NCBI RefSeq assembly: GCF_030408835.1
Contig: NZ_CP047357.1
Span: forward strand, 1,054,001-1,118,000
Origin: Corynebacterium freneyi
GTDB taxonomy: Bacteria > Actinomycetota > Actinomycetes > Mycobacteriales > Mycobacteriaceae
Length of the DNA: 64,000 nucleotides
Direction of reading: 5' to 3'
Shown here: positions 4,735-60,609 of the stretch, piece after piece
Position numbering within the stretch: position 1 is the stretch's first letter
How the letters are laid out: each line of letters starts with the position of its first letter
Translations under genes and position numbers: made by a program
The notes under the pieces: model-generated
Told to the model about the DNA's origin: nothing
Database searches by the model: none
The model's input: the letters and a program-made list of their open reading frames with translations, nothing else

Positions 4735-5135
4735 CGAGGGCTCGACTCGAACGTGCGGACGATGGTTTCCGTTTGATGGCACGTCATCGCCGGTCATCAC
4801 CCCCGATCATTTCCGCTTTCACCCGAAAACGGTGCAATCCCACAGGATCGAGCGCCGTTTTCCCGCTTTACGGGGTCGAATGCCCGGGGGTGTGCCCAAT
4901 GTGAAAAACGTGCCGGAACTGTTATCCTGAGCGATGGGTAAGACGGCTTGCCCCCGTTTCGGGTTTCCCGCAGACGGGGGCGCAGGTCGGCGGCCGTAGA
5001 AATACGGGGTCGGCTTCGGCTGCCACCCCGTGTACGCCGTGCAGATGTGCGAATGGAATCGCCGGCGCTCCACGTTAAACGACGTCCTTCGCACCGCTTG
5101 ACCCAGTTCATGCGGCCCAATCACGGGAGAGAACG
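4735..5135 (+). promoter_or_regulatory. ATP synthase operon promoter and leader region
   Basis: A 401-nt stretch with no convincing gene. TATCCT at 4923-4928 is a plausible -10 box, with GTGAAA at 4901-4906 sixteen bases upstream as a weak -35. Downstream is a strong hairpin: GCCCCCGT (4950-4957) pairs with ACGGGGGC (4974-4981), and inside it CGGG pairs with CCCG. There is no T-run after it, so it is not a classical terminator. A 21-codon ORF (ATG 4934 to TAG) spans the hairpin, but it has no clear ribosome site. The leader from the putative start point to atpB would be about 200 nt. Confidence 0.45.
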
Positions 5136-5954
5136 CTGAGCGTTTCAACACTTGCCGCCACGAAGGGTGAGTTTCACTCACCCAACTTGCAGGAGGAGTA
5201 CTTCCCGGGTGAGCTGTACGACCACTTCATCATCGGAGGTGCCGGCGACTGGTACGCCATGGACCGCCTGATGTTCGTTCGTCTGCTCATGGCCGTTCTC
5301 GTCGCCATCTTCTTCGTGGTCGCCTTCCGGCGGCCGAAGCTGGTGCCGACTGGACTGCAGAATGTCGCCGAGATGATGCTGGACTTCGTCCGCATCCACA
5401 TCGCGGAGGAAATTCTGGGCAAGAAGGAGGGCCGCCGGTTCCTGCCGGTGCTGGCCACCATCTTCTTCCTGGTCATCTCGATGAACGTTGCGGCCGTCAT
5501 TCCCGGCCTCAACATCTCGCCCAACGCGCGAATCGGCATGCCGCTGATTCTCGCGCTGTTCGCGTATGTCGCCTTCATCTACGCGGGCTCGAAGAAGTAC
5601 GGCTTCTTCAAGTACGTGAAGTCTTCGGTCGTCATCCCGAACTTGCCGCCGGCGCTCCACCTCATCGTGGTGCCCATCGAGATCTTCTCCACCTTCGTTC
5701 TGCGCCCGGCCACGCTGACCATCCGTCTGATGGCCAACATGCTGGCCGGCCACATGGTCCTCGTTCTTCTGTTCGGAGCCACGAACTTCTTCTTCTGGCA
5801 GCTGAACGGCTGGACGGCCCTGTCCGGCTTGACCCTCATCGCCTCGATCCTGTTCACGCTGTTCGAGCTTCTGGTGATCTTCCTGCAGGCGTACATCTTC
5901 GCCCTGCTGAGCGCCGTGTACATCGAACTGTCGCTGCACGCAGACGAGCACTAG
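5136..5954 (+). CDS. atpB: ATP synthase Fo subunit a
   Basis: Membrane subunit forming the proton half-channels of F1Fo ATP synthase. The essential arginine is in TLTIRLMANMLAGH, followed by the conserved C-terminal helix FLQAYIFALLSAVYIELSLHAD at its usual place. Start choice is unusual. The first ATG/GTG/TTG in frame is TTG 5187, which has no ribosome site. Yet corynebacterial homologues begin with a KGxFHxPxL segment that is encoded here upstream (KGEFHSPNL). The frame is open back to a stop at 5076-5078, and the only plausible initiator is CTG 5136, preceded by GGGAGAG at 4 nt. A perfect 8-bp hairpin (5165-5183) lies in this N-terminal stretch. I chose CTG 5136 (272 aa); TTG 5187 (255 aa) is the conservative alternative. 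Confidence 0.9.
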   Translation: MSVSTLAATKGEFHSPNLQEEYFPGELYDHFIIGGAGDWYAMDRLMFVRLLMAVLVAIFFVVAFRRPKLVPTGLQNVAEMMLDFVRIHIAEEILGKKEGRRFLPVLATIFFLVISMNVAAVIPGLNISPNARIGMPLILALFAYVAFIYAGSKKYGFFKYVKSSVVIPNLPPALHLIVVPIEIFSTFVLRPATLTIRLMANMLAGHMVLVLLFGATNFFFWQLNGWTALSGLTLIASILFTLFELLVIFLQAYIFALLSAVYIELSLHADEH

Positions 5955-36897: not shown

Positions 36898-36929
36898 CGC
36901 GCCTTTCGGCCGGGTCGATGGCGTTGGAA

Positions 36930-37092
36930 TGTTACGGTTGTCGCGCAAGGAATCGGCGTCAGGGAATCCGGTGTGAATCCGGAACTGTCGCGCAGCGGTG
37001 AGAGGGATCCATCCCCCGCATGAGGCCACTGGAGTGCACTGCACCGTCCGGGAAGGCGCGGGGGAGTCGCCTTCGAGTCCGAAGACCCGCCG
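36930..37092 (+). ncRNA. Cobalamin (adenosylcobalamin) riboswitch
   Basis: Conserved elements in the right order: the segment CCGGTGTGAATCCGG (36968-36982), CGCGCAGCGGTGAGAGGG, the B12 box GCCACTG (37025-37031), then GTCCGGGAAGGCGCGGGGG with its complementary 3' stem. The element ends 60 nt before the first transporter gene. Its class and position predict shut-off of the uptake operon when B12 is plentiful, probably by masking the ribosome site or by termination. No clear T-run is seen, so translational control is likelier. Confidence 0.92.
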
Positions 37093-37154
37093 GTTCGTCA
37101 TCGACGTCGCATCTCGCGTAAAGATCGCGGCGGTTTTCCACGAAGGTGGACCAA

Positions 37155-57715: not shown

Positions 57716-57718
57716 TTT

Positions 57719-57729
57719 GCTTGACGACG
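57719..57729 (+). repeat. GCTTGACGACG copy at the gatB end
   Basis: The exact 11-mer begins 4 nt after the gatB stop and runs straight into the terminator stem. The wider string TTTGCTTGACGAC is shared with the copies at 63453 (minus) and, in part, 20608. Confidence 0.55.
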
Positions 57730-57730
57730 C

Positions 57731-57769
57731 CCACGGGCCCGGCATCCGATGTGGATGCCGGGCCCGTGG
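57731..57769 (+). terminator. Terminator after gatB
   Basis: CCACGGGCCCGGCATCC (57731-57747) pairs perfectly with GGATGCCGGGCCCGTGG (57753-57769) over 17 bp with a GATGT loop, followed by CGTTTGGTTGGTCGTTG. Confidence 0.9.
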
Positions 57770-57770
57770 C

Positions 57771-58224
57771 GTTTGGTTGGTCGTTGTGCGCCGCTGTACT
57801 TTTGCGGTGAATATAGGAGAATAATGGGCATTTGCTGGACCGTGTCGGGTGGGGGAATTTTCAGCCGAGGCTTTATGTGGATCCTGTGAACGCTCTGCAT
57901 TTTGTTGAAGATATAGTTATCTGAAGCGTATTGCGGCCCCTTTTGCGTGATCGGCTTTCTGACGCTCGGAGGTGCGGGTGACCTATCGGCGCAGCGTGCT
58001 GCCATGGTGGGCATGCGGCAAGAGTCGCAATTGTGCAGCGTCAAGGGTGGGGGTGCGCATTGTTGTGGGGTGACCTGCGTTAATTCAAAATGCCGGGGGG
58101 TCGCCAAAAAATAGTTGCTCCAAATGGGGGAAATGTGTGCTTATCCTGATGGCGAAGTTGTTCAGCGATGTGGCCGGTGGCGCTATCGCGGCGTGAATGG
58201 CCACATATATGTGAGGAGATCACG
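57771..58224. other. AT-richer intergenic region before the surface locus
   Basis: About 450 nt without a supported gene. Base composition drops to near 50% G+C in places, unlike the flanks. TTATCCTGA at 58141-58149 repeats the nine bases at the putative atp promoter (4922-4930) and may be a -10 region. The string GGGTGACCT occurs twice (near 57977 and 58068). A minus-strand ORF covers much of it, but it runs through the gatB terminator and has no family look. A promoter for the surface protein, or a small RNA, could be here. Confidence 0.4.
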
Positions 58225-58923
58225 ATGAAGGTCAGGAAGACGACCGTGTGGGCCGGTGCCGCGATTCTCGCCTCCGGTGTGATGACGATGGGGGCTCCGG
58301 CGGCTCTTGCCGATGTCGACGATGACGGGGTTCTGATTCAGGCGCAGGAAGCCGGGGGCGACCAGGGCGGTGACGACCAGGGCGGTGACGACCAGGGCGG
58401 CGACGGCGGCGGCGACGGCGGAGATGACGGCGGCGACGGCGGCGATGACGGCGGCGACGGCGGCGACGGCGGAGATGACGGCGGCGACGGCGGCGACGGC
58501 GGAGATGACGGCGGCGACGGCGATGACGACGGCGGAGATGACGGCGGCGACGGCGGTGACGACGGCGGAGATGACGGCGGCGACGGCGATGACGACGGCG
58601 GAGATGACGGCGGCGACGACGGCGATGACGGCGGCGACGACGGCGATGACGGTGGCGACGACGGCGGAGATGACGGCGGCGACGACGGCGATGACGGCGG
58701 CGACGGCAACGGGGGCGACGATGAAGACGGCGACGGCAACGGGGGCGACGACAAGGACAAGGACAAGCCCCGTCCGACCGACCCGCGGGAACGTCCGCGG
58801 CCGGGTGATCGTGGCGTGCCGGCGCGTACCGGCGACACCACCGCCGCGTGGGCTGCTGCAGGTGGCGTGGTGCTGATCTCGGTTGCGGGTGGCACGTACG
58901 CGCTGCGTCGTCGTCAAGCCTGA
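58225..58923 (+). CDS. Asp-Gly-repeat cell-wall-anchored surface protein
   Basis: A 232-residue secreted protein. The signal peptide is cleaved after AALA (residue 29). Residues 44-176 consist almost only of Gly and Asp in short units such as GGDDGGD, making a very acidic, flexible rod. A KDKDK and Pro/Arg-rich spacer (177-197) leads to the sorting signal: PARTG at 199-203, a hydrophobic helix (about 207-226) and the tail RRRQA. PARTG is nearer to the LAxTG signal of class E sortases than to LPxTG. GAGGAGATCACG precedes the ATG. Two sortase-fold genes follow, so they probably act on it. No function of the Asp-Gly rod is known to me; calcium binding is a guess. Confidence 0.85.
   Translation: MKVRKTTVWAGAAILASGVMTMGAPAALADVDDDGVLIQAQEAGGDQGGDDQGGDDQGGDGGGDGGDDGGDGGDDGGDGGDGGDDGGDGGDGGDDGGDGDDDGGDDGGDGGDDGGDDGGDGDDDGGDDGGDDGDDGGDDGDDGGDDGGDDGGDDGDDGGDGNGGDDEDGDGNGGDDKDKDKPRPTDPRERPRPGDRGVPARTGDTTAAWAAAGGVVLISVAGGTYALRRRQA
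58354..58752. repeat. Low-complexity GGCGAC/GATGAC tract
   Basis: Some 400 bp built from GGC, GAC, GAT and GGA codons, with longer units (e.g. GGCGGAGATGACGGC) repeating imperfectly. It encodes the Asp-Gly rod and is likely to vary in length between strains by slippage. Confidence 0.9.
58909..58919 (-). repeat. GCTTGACGACG copy at the end of the surface protein gene
   Basis: CGTCGTCAAGC on the plus strand; it encodes the last residues RRQA and ends 1 nt before the stop codon. Confidence 0.5.
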
Positions 58924-59054
58924 GTGAGGTTGAGTTTCCGGGAGTGATGCGGACGGCGCCGGACGGGTGAGGGACCAACCGCCCGGCCGGCGCCGAACCC
59001 GTCGTTCATCGGTAAGAAGGTGGAAAGTGCGGGTTCGGTTCGGGAGGTGCGGTG

Positions 59055-59750
59055 ATGTCCGGCATGACGCGATCGCGCGGCGGCGTGCGGTTGACGGATG
59101 TCGTGGTTGCGTTGGTGGTCATCGCAGCTTTCGCCGTCGGCGCGCACTTCCTCGGTTTCGGCCCGTTCGCGGATTCCCGGTCGCCGGTCGATCGTGTCGA
59201 CGCCACCGTCGACGTCTCCGAGCCGATTGAGGACATTGCCACGTCGCAGCCCCTCGAGATGGCCATCCCGGCCTTGGGGTTGCGCGCCGACATCGACGCC
59301 CAAGCCTGCCCGTTGACGGACGGTGCGCTCGACCCGCCGACATTGGACACCGCTTGCTACTACGTCGCCGATGATCGTCCGTACTCGCTGCCGGGCACCG
59401 ACGCGCCCGATCTGTCGGTGCTTGCGGGTCATGCCGCAAGTGGCCGGGATGCGGTGTTCGACGACCTCTACGACAACGGCACCGACACCTTCACCCTGGA
59501 GAAGGGCGACGAATTGCTCGTGCGCACCCGCGCCGGCGGGGATCGGTGGCTGGTGTACGAGGCGACCGATTTTCACGGCATCGACAAGGCGTCCCTCGGC
59601 GGCTCCGCCGAAGTGTGGGGCGATGGTCCGATGCCGGGGCGGATGCTGACCATCAGCTGCATCGAGTCCCGCAATCCCTTCGCCGCTGCGACGCACAACG
59701 TCATCGTCGGCTGGACCTTCGCGGGTCTTGCCGATGCCCCGGATCTCTGA
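59055..59750 (+). CDS. Sortase-fold protein 1 (class E/F-like), membrane-anchored
   Basis: A 231-residue protein with one N-terminal helix (about residues 14-33) and an outside sortase domain: LEMAIPALGLRADID, VLAGHAASG with catalytic His126, FTLEKGDELLVRT, and MLTISCIES with catalytic Cys202. The catalytic Arg, normally some ten residues after Cys in the next strand, is not there: that strand reads THNVIVGW. An Arg206 lies four residues after Cys and might replace it. GGAGGTGCGGTG precedes ATG 59055. It lies 131 nt after the wall-protein gene, its likely substrate. Confidence 0.8.
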   Translation: MSGMTRSRGGVRLTDVVVALVVIAAFAVGAHFLGFGPFADSRSPVDRVDATVDVSEPIEDIATSQPLEMAIPALGLRADIDAQACPLTDGALDPPTLDTACYYVADDRPYSLPGTDAPDLSVLAGHAASGRDAVFDDLYDNGTDTFTLEKGDELLVRTRAGGDRWLVYEATDFHGIDKASLGGSAEVWGDGPMPGRMLTISCIESRNPFAAATHNVIVGWTFAGLADAPDL

Positions 59751-59823
59751 CGCACGGGGTTGGCGCCCGCCTACGCCATGAACGGCTCCACCACCAGCGA
59801 CAACACCTTTTCGAATATTCGGC

Positions 59824-59851
59824 TTAATGCAGTGCCGGTTAATGCAGTGCC
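59824..59851. repeat. Tandem 15-bp repeat between the sortase genes
   Basis: TTAATGCAGTGCC occurs at 59824-59836 and 59839-59851, 15 bp apart, in the 172-nt gap between the two sortase genes. It may be an operator pair or a slippage product. Confidence 0.8.
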
Positions 59852-59922
59852 AGACCGACTCTTCGACGGACGTGGCGGGTTTCGTGACATCGGAGGGTCG
59901 CGACTTTCAGGAGAAGATCATC

Positions 59923-60609
59923 ATGTCCACTTCGCTTGCTCGACCGCGCGGAGTGCGGTCGGCCGTTATCGCGGCATTGGCCGCAGTACCGTTGTTGCTC
60001 ACCGCGTGCGGGTCGGATACGCCGCCGTCGCCCGCTTCCCCGGAGCCGGGGGAGACCGGGGAAACCGGGGAGGTCGATCAGGCCGCCATCGAGGCGTCGA
60101 TGCCGGTGGAGATCTCCATGCCGGGCTTGGGTTTGTCGGAGCCTGTGGTCGATGAGTTGTGTCCGATGACGGCCTATGGCGTGGACCCGGTGCAGCTGAT
60201 GGACGTGTGTTTCTACACCGCCGACGACAAGCCGTACGTGTTGCCGTCGACGGATCAGGAGGATGTCGCCGTGTTGGCGGGTCACGCCAACACCCGGCCC
60301 CCGGGTGTTTTCGATGACGTCTACGACTCGGTGAAGCAGGAGTTCAACGTCAAGCTTGGCGACGAGTTGCGCGTGCGGACGGAGGCGTCGGGAAGCAAGT
60401 GGCTCGTGTACAAGGCGACCGATTTCCATACGCCGATGAAGGTGGATCTCGCCGTCGACGATGATGTGTGGGGTACCGAGCCCATGCCCGGGCGCCTGGT
60501 GCTCTTGACGTGTTTGCGCGCGTCAACTCCCAACGAGCCCGTGTTGCACAATGCGGTGGTGGGGTACCAGTTCGACCGGGTCGAGGATGATGACGGGGTG
60601 GATGGCTGA
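59923..60609 (+). CDS. Sortase-fold protein 2, predicted lipoprotein
   Basis: A 228-residue paralogue of the preceding protein. The N-terminus is a lipoprotein signal peptide: AVPLLLTAC with Cys29 as lipid site, then a Pro/Glu/Gly-rich linker. The sortase domain has EISMPGLGLSEPVVD, VLAGHANTRP (His121), FNVKLGDELRVRT, WLVYKATDFH and VLLTCLRAS (Cys197). As in its neighbour, the expected Arg strand reads LHNAVVGYQF without Arg; Arg199 lies two residues after Cys. A lipid-anchored sortase is unusual, since sortases normally use a transmembrane helix. AGGAGAAGATCATC precedes ATG 59923; the longer frame upstream is not used. Confidence 0.8.
   Translation: MSTSLARPRGVRSAVIAALAAVPLLLTACGSDTPPSPASPEPGETGETGEVDQAAIEASMPVEISMPGLGLSEPVVDELCPMTAYGVDPVQLMDVCFYTADDKPYVLPSTDQEDVAVLAGHANTRPPGVFDDVYDSVKQEFNVKLGDELRVRTEASGSKWLVYKATDFHTPMKVDLAVDDDVWGTEPMPGRLVLLTCLRASTPNEPVLHNAVVGYQFDRVEDDDGVDG

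What the first reader, a model, noticed from the sequence alone, without database searches (positions are those of the whole stretch)
58225..60609. Asp-Gly rod protein with two dedicated sortase-fold proteins: a candidate undescribed surface system
A secreted protein made of a 130-residue Gly/Asp rod ends in a sorting signal (PARTG, helix, RRRQA). It is followed on the same strand by two related sortase-fold genes. The signal is non-standard, the sortases are a diverged pair, and the locus sits after an AT-richer gap, between core genes and a 13E12 gene. The simplest reading is a self-contained anchoring unit for a highly acidic wall polymer, perhaps binding Ca2+ or cationic molecules.
Basis: partly seen in the sequence, partly recalled or inferred. 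Interest (0 to 1): 0.75.

Follow-up and report, generated by a model that had tools for sequence, protein, structure and literature searches.

The report
Corynebacterium wall-stalk cassette with paired sortases
A Corynebacterium carries a small gene set that appears to fasten a featureless, low-complexity protein to its cell wall with two unusual copies of a protein-anchoring enzyme; it looks like a pared-down version of a wider, so far unlabelled anchoring system in that genus.

Summary
58225-58923 encodes a secreted protein with a 137-residue Gly/Asp stretch and a PARTG-helix-RRRQA tail. Two related sortase-fold genes follow: a membrane-anchored copy (59055-59750) and a lipoprotein copy (59923-60609). 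'Dedicated anchoring unit' is supported; 'acidic, Ca2+-binding polymer' is not, because the repeat is replaced in the relatives seen and only export signal and tail persist. PARTG belongs to a signal family, RG[MIVL]xAxTG, found at E<=1e-8 in 101 of 242 Corynebacterium genomes, all 101 carrying this class-F-like sortase family; of 110 genomes with other sortases but not this family, none has it at that threshold (15 have weaker matches). The window's clade is derived: the partner lacks its usual domain and is a bare stalk, the sortase is duplicated, and the catalytic-arginine position is His, Asn or Asp in 11 of 11 copies. The housekeeping class E sortase is broken in C. xerosis and G167 and missing from its locus in G070, though kept in the window's genome and G168. 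The pair stays under purifying selection, so it is probably the working anchoring machinery. Catalysis is untested. New variant of a known kind.

The parts
57716..58224 (+). AT-richer intergenic leader after gatB; terminator-like hairpin of the upstream gene at 57731-57769; ribosome-binding stretch GAGGAGATCAC before the ATG conserved in the four clade sequences aligned
58225..58923 (+). stalk ('rod') protein, 232 aa, secreted, sorting-signal tail
58225..58311 (+). signal peptide, about residues 1-29 (cut after ALA, judged by eye)
   Evidence: conserved in clade
58354..58764 (+). low-complexity Gly/Asp stretch, residues 44-180; tandem repeat (periods 12-66 bp)
58810..58920 (+). sorting signal RGVPARTGD-helix-RRRQA (PARTG at 58819-58833), member of the RG[MIVL]xAxTG family
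59055..59750 (+). sortase-fold protein 1 (P0001), N-terminal membrane helix residues 13-32; the copy most like the genus-wide family
59430..59432 (+). His126 codon (catalytic His position), protein 1
59658..59660 (+). Cys202 codon (catalytic Cys position), protein 1
59694..59696 (+). His214 codon at the position of the catalytic Arg (Cys+12, first residue of predicted strand beta-8), protein 1
59923..60609 (+). sortase-fold protein 2 (P0003), lipoprotein (lipobox LTAC by eye, Cys29 at 60007-60009), diverged tandem copy
60283..60285 (+). His121 codon (catalytic His position), protein 2
60511..60513 (+). Cys197 codon (catalytic Cys position), protein 2
60547..60549 (+). His209 codon at the catalytic-Arg position (Cys+12), protein 2

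Best explanation
The three genes are a clade-specific, reduced form of a Corynebacterium class-F-like sortase/partner cassette. The stalk protein is exported (presumably by Sec) and held in the membrane by its C-terminal helix. One or both sortase-fold proteins recognise RGVPARTG, cut between Thr and Gly through the conserved Cys, and pass the stalk to a cell-wall precursor. Copy 1 sits on a membrane helix; copy 2, a lipoprotein, works beside it, perhaps on a second step or as a partner. The mature product is a wall-anchored, probably disordered tether whose sequence and length drift freely. Shown by sequence and model: gene set, signal family, co-occurrence, sortase fold, retained His and Cys, replaced Arg, purifying selection, loss of class E in some relatives. 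Inferred: cleavage, anchoring, division of labour, disorder and tether function.
For: Signal family at E<=1e-8 in 101 of 242 Corynebacterium genomes, all 101 within the 108 that carry the sortase; 0 of the 134 without it, although 110 of those 134 have PF04203 sortases. In fetched stretches 96 of 104 with the sortase motif also hold the signal, 95 of 96 on the sortase's strand, 73 of 96 within 500 bases (frame to frame). In the window's genome the only signal match is the stalk. The 6 clade stretches keep stalk plus two sortases. dN/dS (NG86) is 0.18-0.28 for copy 1 and 0.21-0.27 for copy 2, 6 pairs each. Catalytic His and Cys are invariant in the 66 members of A3 and present in 98 and 97 of the 100 frames. 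The class E gene is only end pieces in C. xerosis (G237) and G167 and leaves no trace between its flanks in G070. G240, with two class-F-like copies and RG signals, also has no PF04203 match at E<=10.
Against: The catalytic Arg is replaced in both copies, which would cripple a textbook sortase. No wall fractionation or cleavage data exist. The window's own genome and the MAG G168 still have an intact-looking class E sortase that could take an xAxTG signal. The 1e-8 threshold was chosen after seeing the results: at E<=1e-3, 118 of 242 genomes match, 15 of them without the class-F-like sortase (best 9.5e-7, none inspected). Related genomes are not independent, so the Fisher value is not a true probability, and the signal model was built from sortase-bearing loci. 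7 of 108 sortase genomes lack a strong signal. C. ulceribovis has a tandem pair with no signal protein found nearby. Neither window protein matches the NCBIfam class F model.
Confidence: 0.6

Rival explanations
1. The pair are pseudo-enzymes (chaperones or substrate binders), and the stalk is cut and anchored by the housekeeping class E sortase, which accepts xAxTG motifs.
For: Catalytic Arg replaced in 11 of 11 clade copies; class E enzymes accept LAxTG (PMC5148588, passages); the window genome has a class E sortase and two LAQTG proteins, and the MAG G168 has a class E sortase too.
Against: Class E is broken in C. xerosis and G167 and absent at its locus in G070, where the stalk and pair persist; G070 and G069 have no PF04203 match even at E<=10. 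His and Cys are still conserved. Arg is also replaced elsewhere in the family. 110 genomes with PF04203 sortases but no class-F-like one lack the signal at E<=1e-8.
Confidence: 0.2
2. The stalk is not anchored at all: its tail is a permanent membrane anchor and the pair does something unrelated, so the neighbours are linked only by descent.
For: No biochemical evidence of cleavage; the A. missouriensis quadruple class F mutant showed no phenotypic change (PMC13251363, passages).
Against: RG, A, TG and a tail Arg are invariant across 57 aligned signals (rows were chosen for RG..A.TG), while stalk sequences in the clade differ entirely; co-occurrence with the sortase.
Confidence: 0.12
3. One reading: an acidic wall polymer that binds Ca2+ or cationic molecules.
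For: The window's stretch carries 63 acidic and 2 basic residues in 137.
Against: The stretch is not conserved: stalk net charge -33 in G167, -14 in C. xerosis, -3 in L034; no Pfam match in the stalk protein and no RTX nonapeptide seen by eye.
Confidence: 0.06
4. A sortase-built pilus or fibre in which the second sortase polymerises the stalk.
For: Two sortases beside one substrate, as in some pilus loci (recalled).
Against: No Pfam domain in the stalk and no pilin motif by eye; L036 has no lysine between its export signal and the end of the protein.
Confidence: 0.02

Closest known systems
Class F sortases (NCBIfam NF033748; first reported in Propionibacterium acnes according to PMC13251363, passages)
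   Same: Actinobacterial, single sortase domain, His and Cys conserved; 13 of 51 family members touch NF033748 at E<=1, best 3.5e-5; NCBI calls a C. ulceribovis relative 'class F sortase' (search listing)
   Different: Window copies do not match NF033748; Arg position is His; copy 2 is a lipoprotein; two conserved Cys precede the catalytic His
A. missouriensis SrtF1/SrtF4 with neighbours AMIS_11010/AMIS_36440 (PMC13251363, passages)
   Same: Class F sortase next to a secreted protein with a transmembrane region and basic C-terminal end, suspected substrate
   Different: There no recognition pentapeptide was found; here a shared motif RG[MIVL]xAxTG is defined by comparison
SspA of A. missouriensis, sortase-anchored disordered protein (PMC13293333, passages)
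   Same: Secreted, predicted-disordered mature part, sorting signal
   Different: Anchored by class E (PMC13251363, passages), whose genes lie at separate loci; no Asp-Gly repeat mentioned in the passages seen
Class E sortase / LAxTG system (PMC5148588, passages)
   Same: Ala at the second motif position, xAxTG
   Different: Window signal has Pro for Leu and an RG dipeptide shortly before the motif; class E Arg is 9 residues after Cys (C320, R329), here the position is +12

Membership tests
Sortase superfamily | sortase beta-barrel fold | tested here: met
Sortase superfamily | catalytic His and Cys | tested here: met
   GHA and (I/L)(S/T)C in both window proteins; His and Cys invariant in the 66 members of A3
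Sortase superfamily | catalytic Arg on strand beta-8 | tested here: not met
   His at Cys+12 in both copies; the column is R in 86 and K in 11 of 116 family copies counted. Position assigned by sequence pattern and predicted strand, not by a measured distance
Class F sortase (NF033748) | match to the curated model | tested here: inconclusive
   no match for P0001 or P0003 at E<=1; 13 of 51 relatives match at E<=1
LPXTG-type sorting signal (TIGR01167) | motif, hydrophobic helix, basic end (score over the curated cut-off) | tested here: met
   18.8 bits, cut-off 15.9
LPXTG-type sorting signal (TIGR01167) | literal LPXTG or LAXTG | tested here: not met
   PARTG; family consensus RG[MIVL]xAxTG
Sortase-assembled pilus | pilin motif and pilin domains in the substrate | tested here: not met
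   no Pfam match in the stalk protein at E<=1; no pilin motif by eye
RTX-type Ca2+-binding repeats | conserved Ca2+-binding repeat | tested here: not met
   no Pfam match at E<=1; the repeat is not kept in relatives
Sortase superfamily | transpeptidase activity | not testable with these tools
   needs enzyme assays

The most novel reading that the evidence does not exclude
The pair are active transpeptidases that work without the canonical beta-8 arginine. They use another basic group: Arg at Cys+4, present in 6 of 6 clade copy-1 loci (5 of them distinct; L034 and L038 are near-identical), or the Arg of PARTG in the substrate itself. In sister species they have replaced the housekeeping sortase altogether, so a dedicated class-F-like couple is the cell's only sortase system.
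Probability: 0.27. Interest if true: 0.78.

Novelty: new variant of a known kind. Interest (0 to 1): 0.56.

Why it matters
The physiological roles of class F sortases are described as unknown (PMC13251363, passages). A motif that co-occurs with one sortase family across a genus names about a hundred candidate enzyme-substrate pairs that can be tested. Species that lost the housekeeping sortase but kept an Arg-less pair offer a natural test of whether the sortase triad is really obligatory.

Tried and rejected
Rejected: Ca2+-binding polymer as the conserved function (stalk not conserved); pilus (no pilin features); chance open frame (conserved ends). Substrate-supplied Arg as a general rule: rejected, since other family members without Arg or Lys at Cys+12 have N, E, Q or A before TG in the neighbouring signal, and L092 has HARTG with an Arg-bearing sortase; it stays open for this clade only.

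Led nowhere: PDB sequence searches with P0001, P0003 and A2 gave no sortase. hhalign of A2 against the genome's class E sequence did not align the domains, so the Arg column rests on pattern and model. No coordinates of the models were available, so no distance from Arg206 to Cys202 could be measured. Searches of open PMC papers listed no title or abstract on Corynebacterium class F substrates; one search found no paper holding sortase, Corynebacterium and AETG together; most subscription papers are not held. One search's residue count misses 8 fetched stretches (L096, L125, L128-L133) that its pattern did not fit. The tree places copy 2 with the second C. ulceribovis copy (support 100/96) but warns that long branches meet there, so the age of the duplication is unsure. 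A first domain pattern found 43 of 121 and was replaced by a profile (104 of 121; 48 of the 121 trained it). The A2 profile was not run over the whole genus; sortase presence rests on the single query P0003, so diverged copies may be missed.

Full report
Observation. The stalk gene is 58225-58923. After a signal peptide come residues 44-180 with 67 Gly and 62 Asp of 137; the longest G/D-only run is 104 residues and no other [GDE] run of 18 or more occurs in six frames of the window. The protein ends in RGVPARTGD, a hydrophobic helix and RRRQA, above the cut-off of the LPXTG anchor model. Two sortase-fold genes follow on the same strand after gaps of 131 and 172 bases. They are 45% identical over 167 residues. 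Pfam misses the first and sees the second just below cut-off, but predicted structures of both match known sortases. The first has an N-terminal membrane helix; the second has a lipobox by eye, as do the 4 other clade copies printed (L034, L035, L036, L039).

The repeat is not the conserved part. In L035 (C. xerosis) the stalk is PDPSEDPK repeats, in L034 and L038 PTETSK, in L036 and L039 other acidic mixtures. Stalk net charge is -63 in the window, -33 in G167, -14 in C. xerosis and -3 in L034. Among metagenome proteins with a C. xerosis-like stalk, length varies by repeat number (P0149-P0151: 135, 159 and 171 aa). The signal peptide, tail and ribosome-binding stretch are conserved. So the repeat behaves as a drifting spacer; a Ca2+ role is not supported as the conserved function.

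A genus-wide family. P0003 matches in 109 of 242 Corynebacterium genomes at E<=1e-3; I set aside G081, whose match (E 4.9e-4) covers only residues 11-61, leaving 108. In the first set of relatives P0001 was the better query for 93 of 100 frames, so copy 1 is the ordinary member and copy 2 the diverged duplicate. Near these sortases lie secreted proteins with a shared tail. In the fetched loci a loose xAxTG-plus-helix filter found 140 signals, of which 121 read RGxxAxTG, the residue after RG being M, I, V or L in 120 and A in one. The other 19 are mostly LAxTG types. A profile of 57 such tails (A1) matches at E<=1e-8 in 101 of 242 genomes. All 101 are among the 108 with the sortase; 7 have sortase only, none signal only, 134 neither. 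Two of those seven (G143, G144) hold sortase matches with stop codons inside. The threshold was set after the fact, in the gap between the weakest strong genome (2.5e-11) and the next (9.5e-7). At E<=1e-3 there are 118 matching genomes; 15 of the 17 extra ones lack the class-F-like sortase, and I did not inspect those matches. As a control, 213 of 242 genomes have a PF04203 match at E<=1e-6; 110 of these lack the class-F-like family and none of the 110 reaches 1e-8 for the signal. Limits: the profile came from sortase-bearing loci, the sortase set rests on one query, and related genomes are not independent. In 121 genomes sampled from the family (31 genera; 8 listed as Corynebacterium) both signal and sortase were found only in Corynebacterium (5 of 121 each). 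A protein search listed one distant relative from Microbacteriaceae.

The window's clade is derived. Across the genus 104 of 121 signal proteins carry a short domain of the form YLNxDGxTYV...PTxEE (profile E<1e-3, 48 of the 121 used to train it), and none of the 6 clade members does. Pfam and NCBIfam gave only scattered weak matches at E<=0.1 in the 20 proteins scanned, none shared by more than 3. In the window's own genome the stalk is the only match to the signal profile, and a profile of whole partner proteins finds only the stalk's tail. Gene order partly supports descent from a common locus: a gatB match lies in 9 of 110 fetched stretches, namely 4 of the clade, L037 (C. ulceribovis), and L060, L069, L087 and L092; in L069 and L087 it is directly beside the sortase, in L060 about 2.3 kb and in L092 about 4 kb away. 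In the rest of the genus the cassette sits elsewhere.

Active site. His and Cys are invariant in the 66 members of A3. The Arg position, Cys+12 at the start of predicted strand beta-8, is R in 86, K in 11, H in 8, Q in 3, and N, D, E, S in 2 each of 116 copies; 8 fetched stretches did not fit the counting pattern, and in 12 copies the spacing is 10 or 11 rather than 12. In the window's clade 0 of 11 copies have R or K. In SrtE1 the Arg contacts the P3 carbonyl (PMC5148588, passages). Copy 1 in the clade has an Arg at Cys+4 in 6 of 6 loci. Whether this compensates is unknown.

Why I still think the pair works. Both copies are under purifying selection (dN/dS NG86 0.18-0.28 and 0.21-0.27; the YN00 method failed for five of the six copy-2 pairs). 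In C. xerosis (G237) and G167 the housekeeping class E gene survives only as end pieces with the middle missing. In G070, a one-contig genome, its flanking genes stand about 670 bases apart with no tblastn trace of it between them, and neither G070 nor G069 has a PF04203 match at E<=10. There the pair is the only sortase found. The same holds for G240, which has two class-F-like copies and RG signals. Against this, the window's own genome keeps an intact-looking class E sortase and two LAQTG proteins, and the MAG G168 keeps a class E sortase, so there the housekeeping enzyme remains a possible route for the stalk.

Known systems. Class F roles are called unknown, and a quadruple class F deletion in A. 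missouriensis had no visible phenotype; two class F neighbours there look like substrates without a motif (PMC13251363, passages). SspA is a predicted-disordered sortase-anchored protein needed for rigid sporangia, anchored by class E (PMC13293333 and PMC13251363, passages). These are likenesses, not membership.

Verdict. Observation confirmed; interpretation partly supported. A clade-specific, reduced and duplicated variant of a genus-wide class-F-like sortase/partner pairing with its own sorting signal. Function of the stalk and activity of the Arg-less pair are inferred.

Noticed in passing
L222 (G237:C2:305000-319000), L223 (G167:C262), L208 (G070:C1:820001-840000): Housekeeping class E sortase gene reduced to remnants in C. 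xerosis and G167 and missing between its conserved flanks in G070.
   Followed up: partly
L146 and L149 (window genome, G000:C1 near 1398225 and 1399883): Two secreted proteins with SALGSS-type repeats and LAQTG tails, perhaps class E substrates.
   Followed up: no
fetched loci, e.g. L067, L083, L097, L109: A short domain YLNxDGxTYV..PTxEExxxSxxLLxxNxxEV precedes the RG-type signal in 104 of 121 partner proteins; Pfam and NCBIfam gave no consistent match.
   Followed up: partly
L070, L075, L096, L132: Very long proteins (about 1140-1260 aa) with LASTGAN(V/I)GW tails sit directly downstream of the class-F-like sortase instead of RG-type partners.
   Followed up: no
family alignment A3, P0001 Cys85 and Cys101: Two Cys before the catalytic His are invariant in 66 members; a possible disulfide.
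   Followed up: no
L034 (NZ_JVMD01000020.1): Record titled C. halotolerans 307_CHAL is nearly identical here to G070, probably C. hansenii; the label may be wrong.
   Followed up: no
window 36918-37108 and 5029-5149: Cobalamin riboswitch and atpB RNA by Rfam.
   Followed up: no
L045 6478-7248: Second class-F-like copy in G229 with the catalytic His and Cys positions changed: a likely dead paralogue beside an intact one.
   Followed up: no
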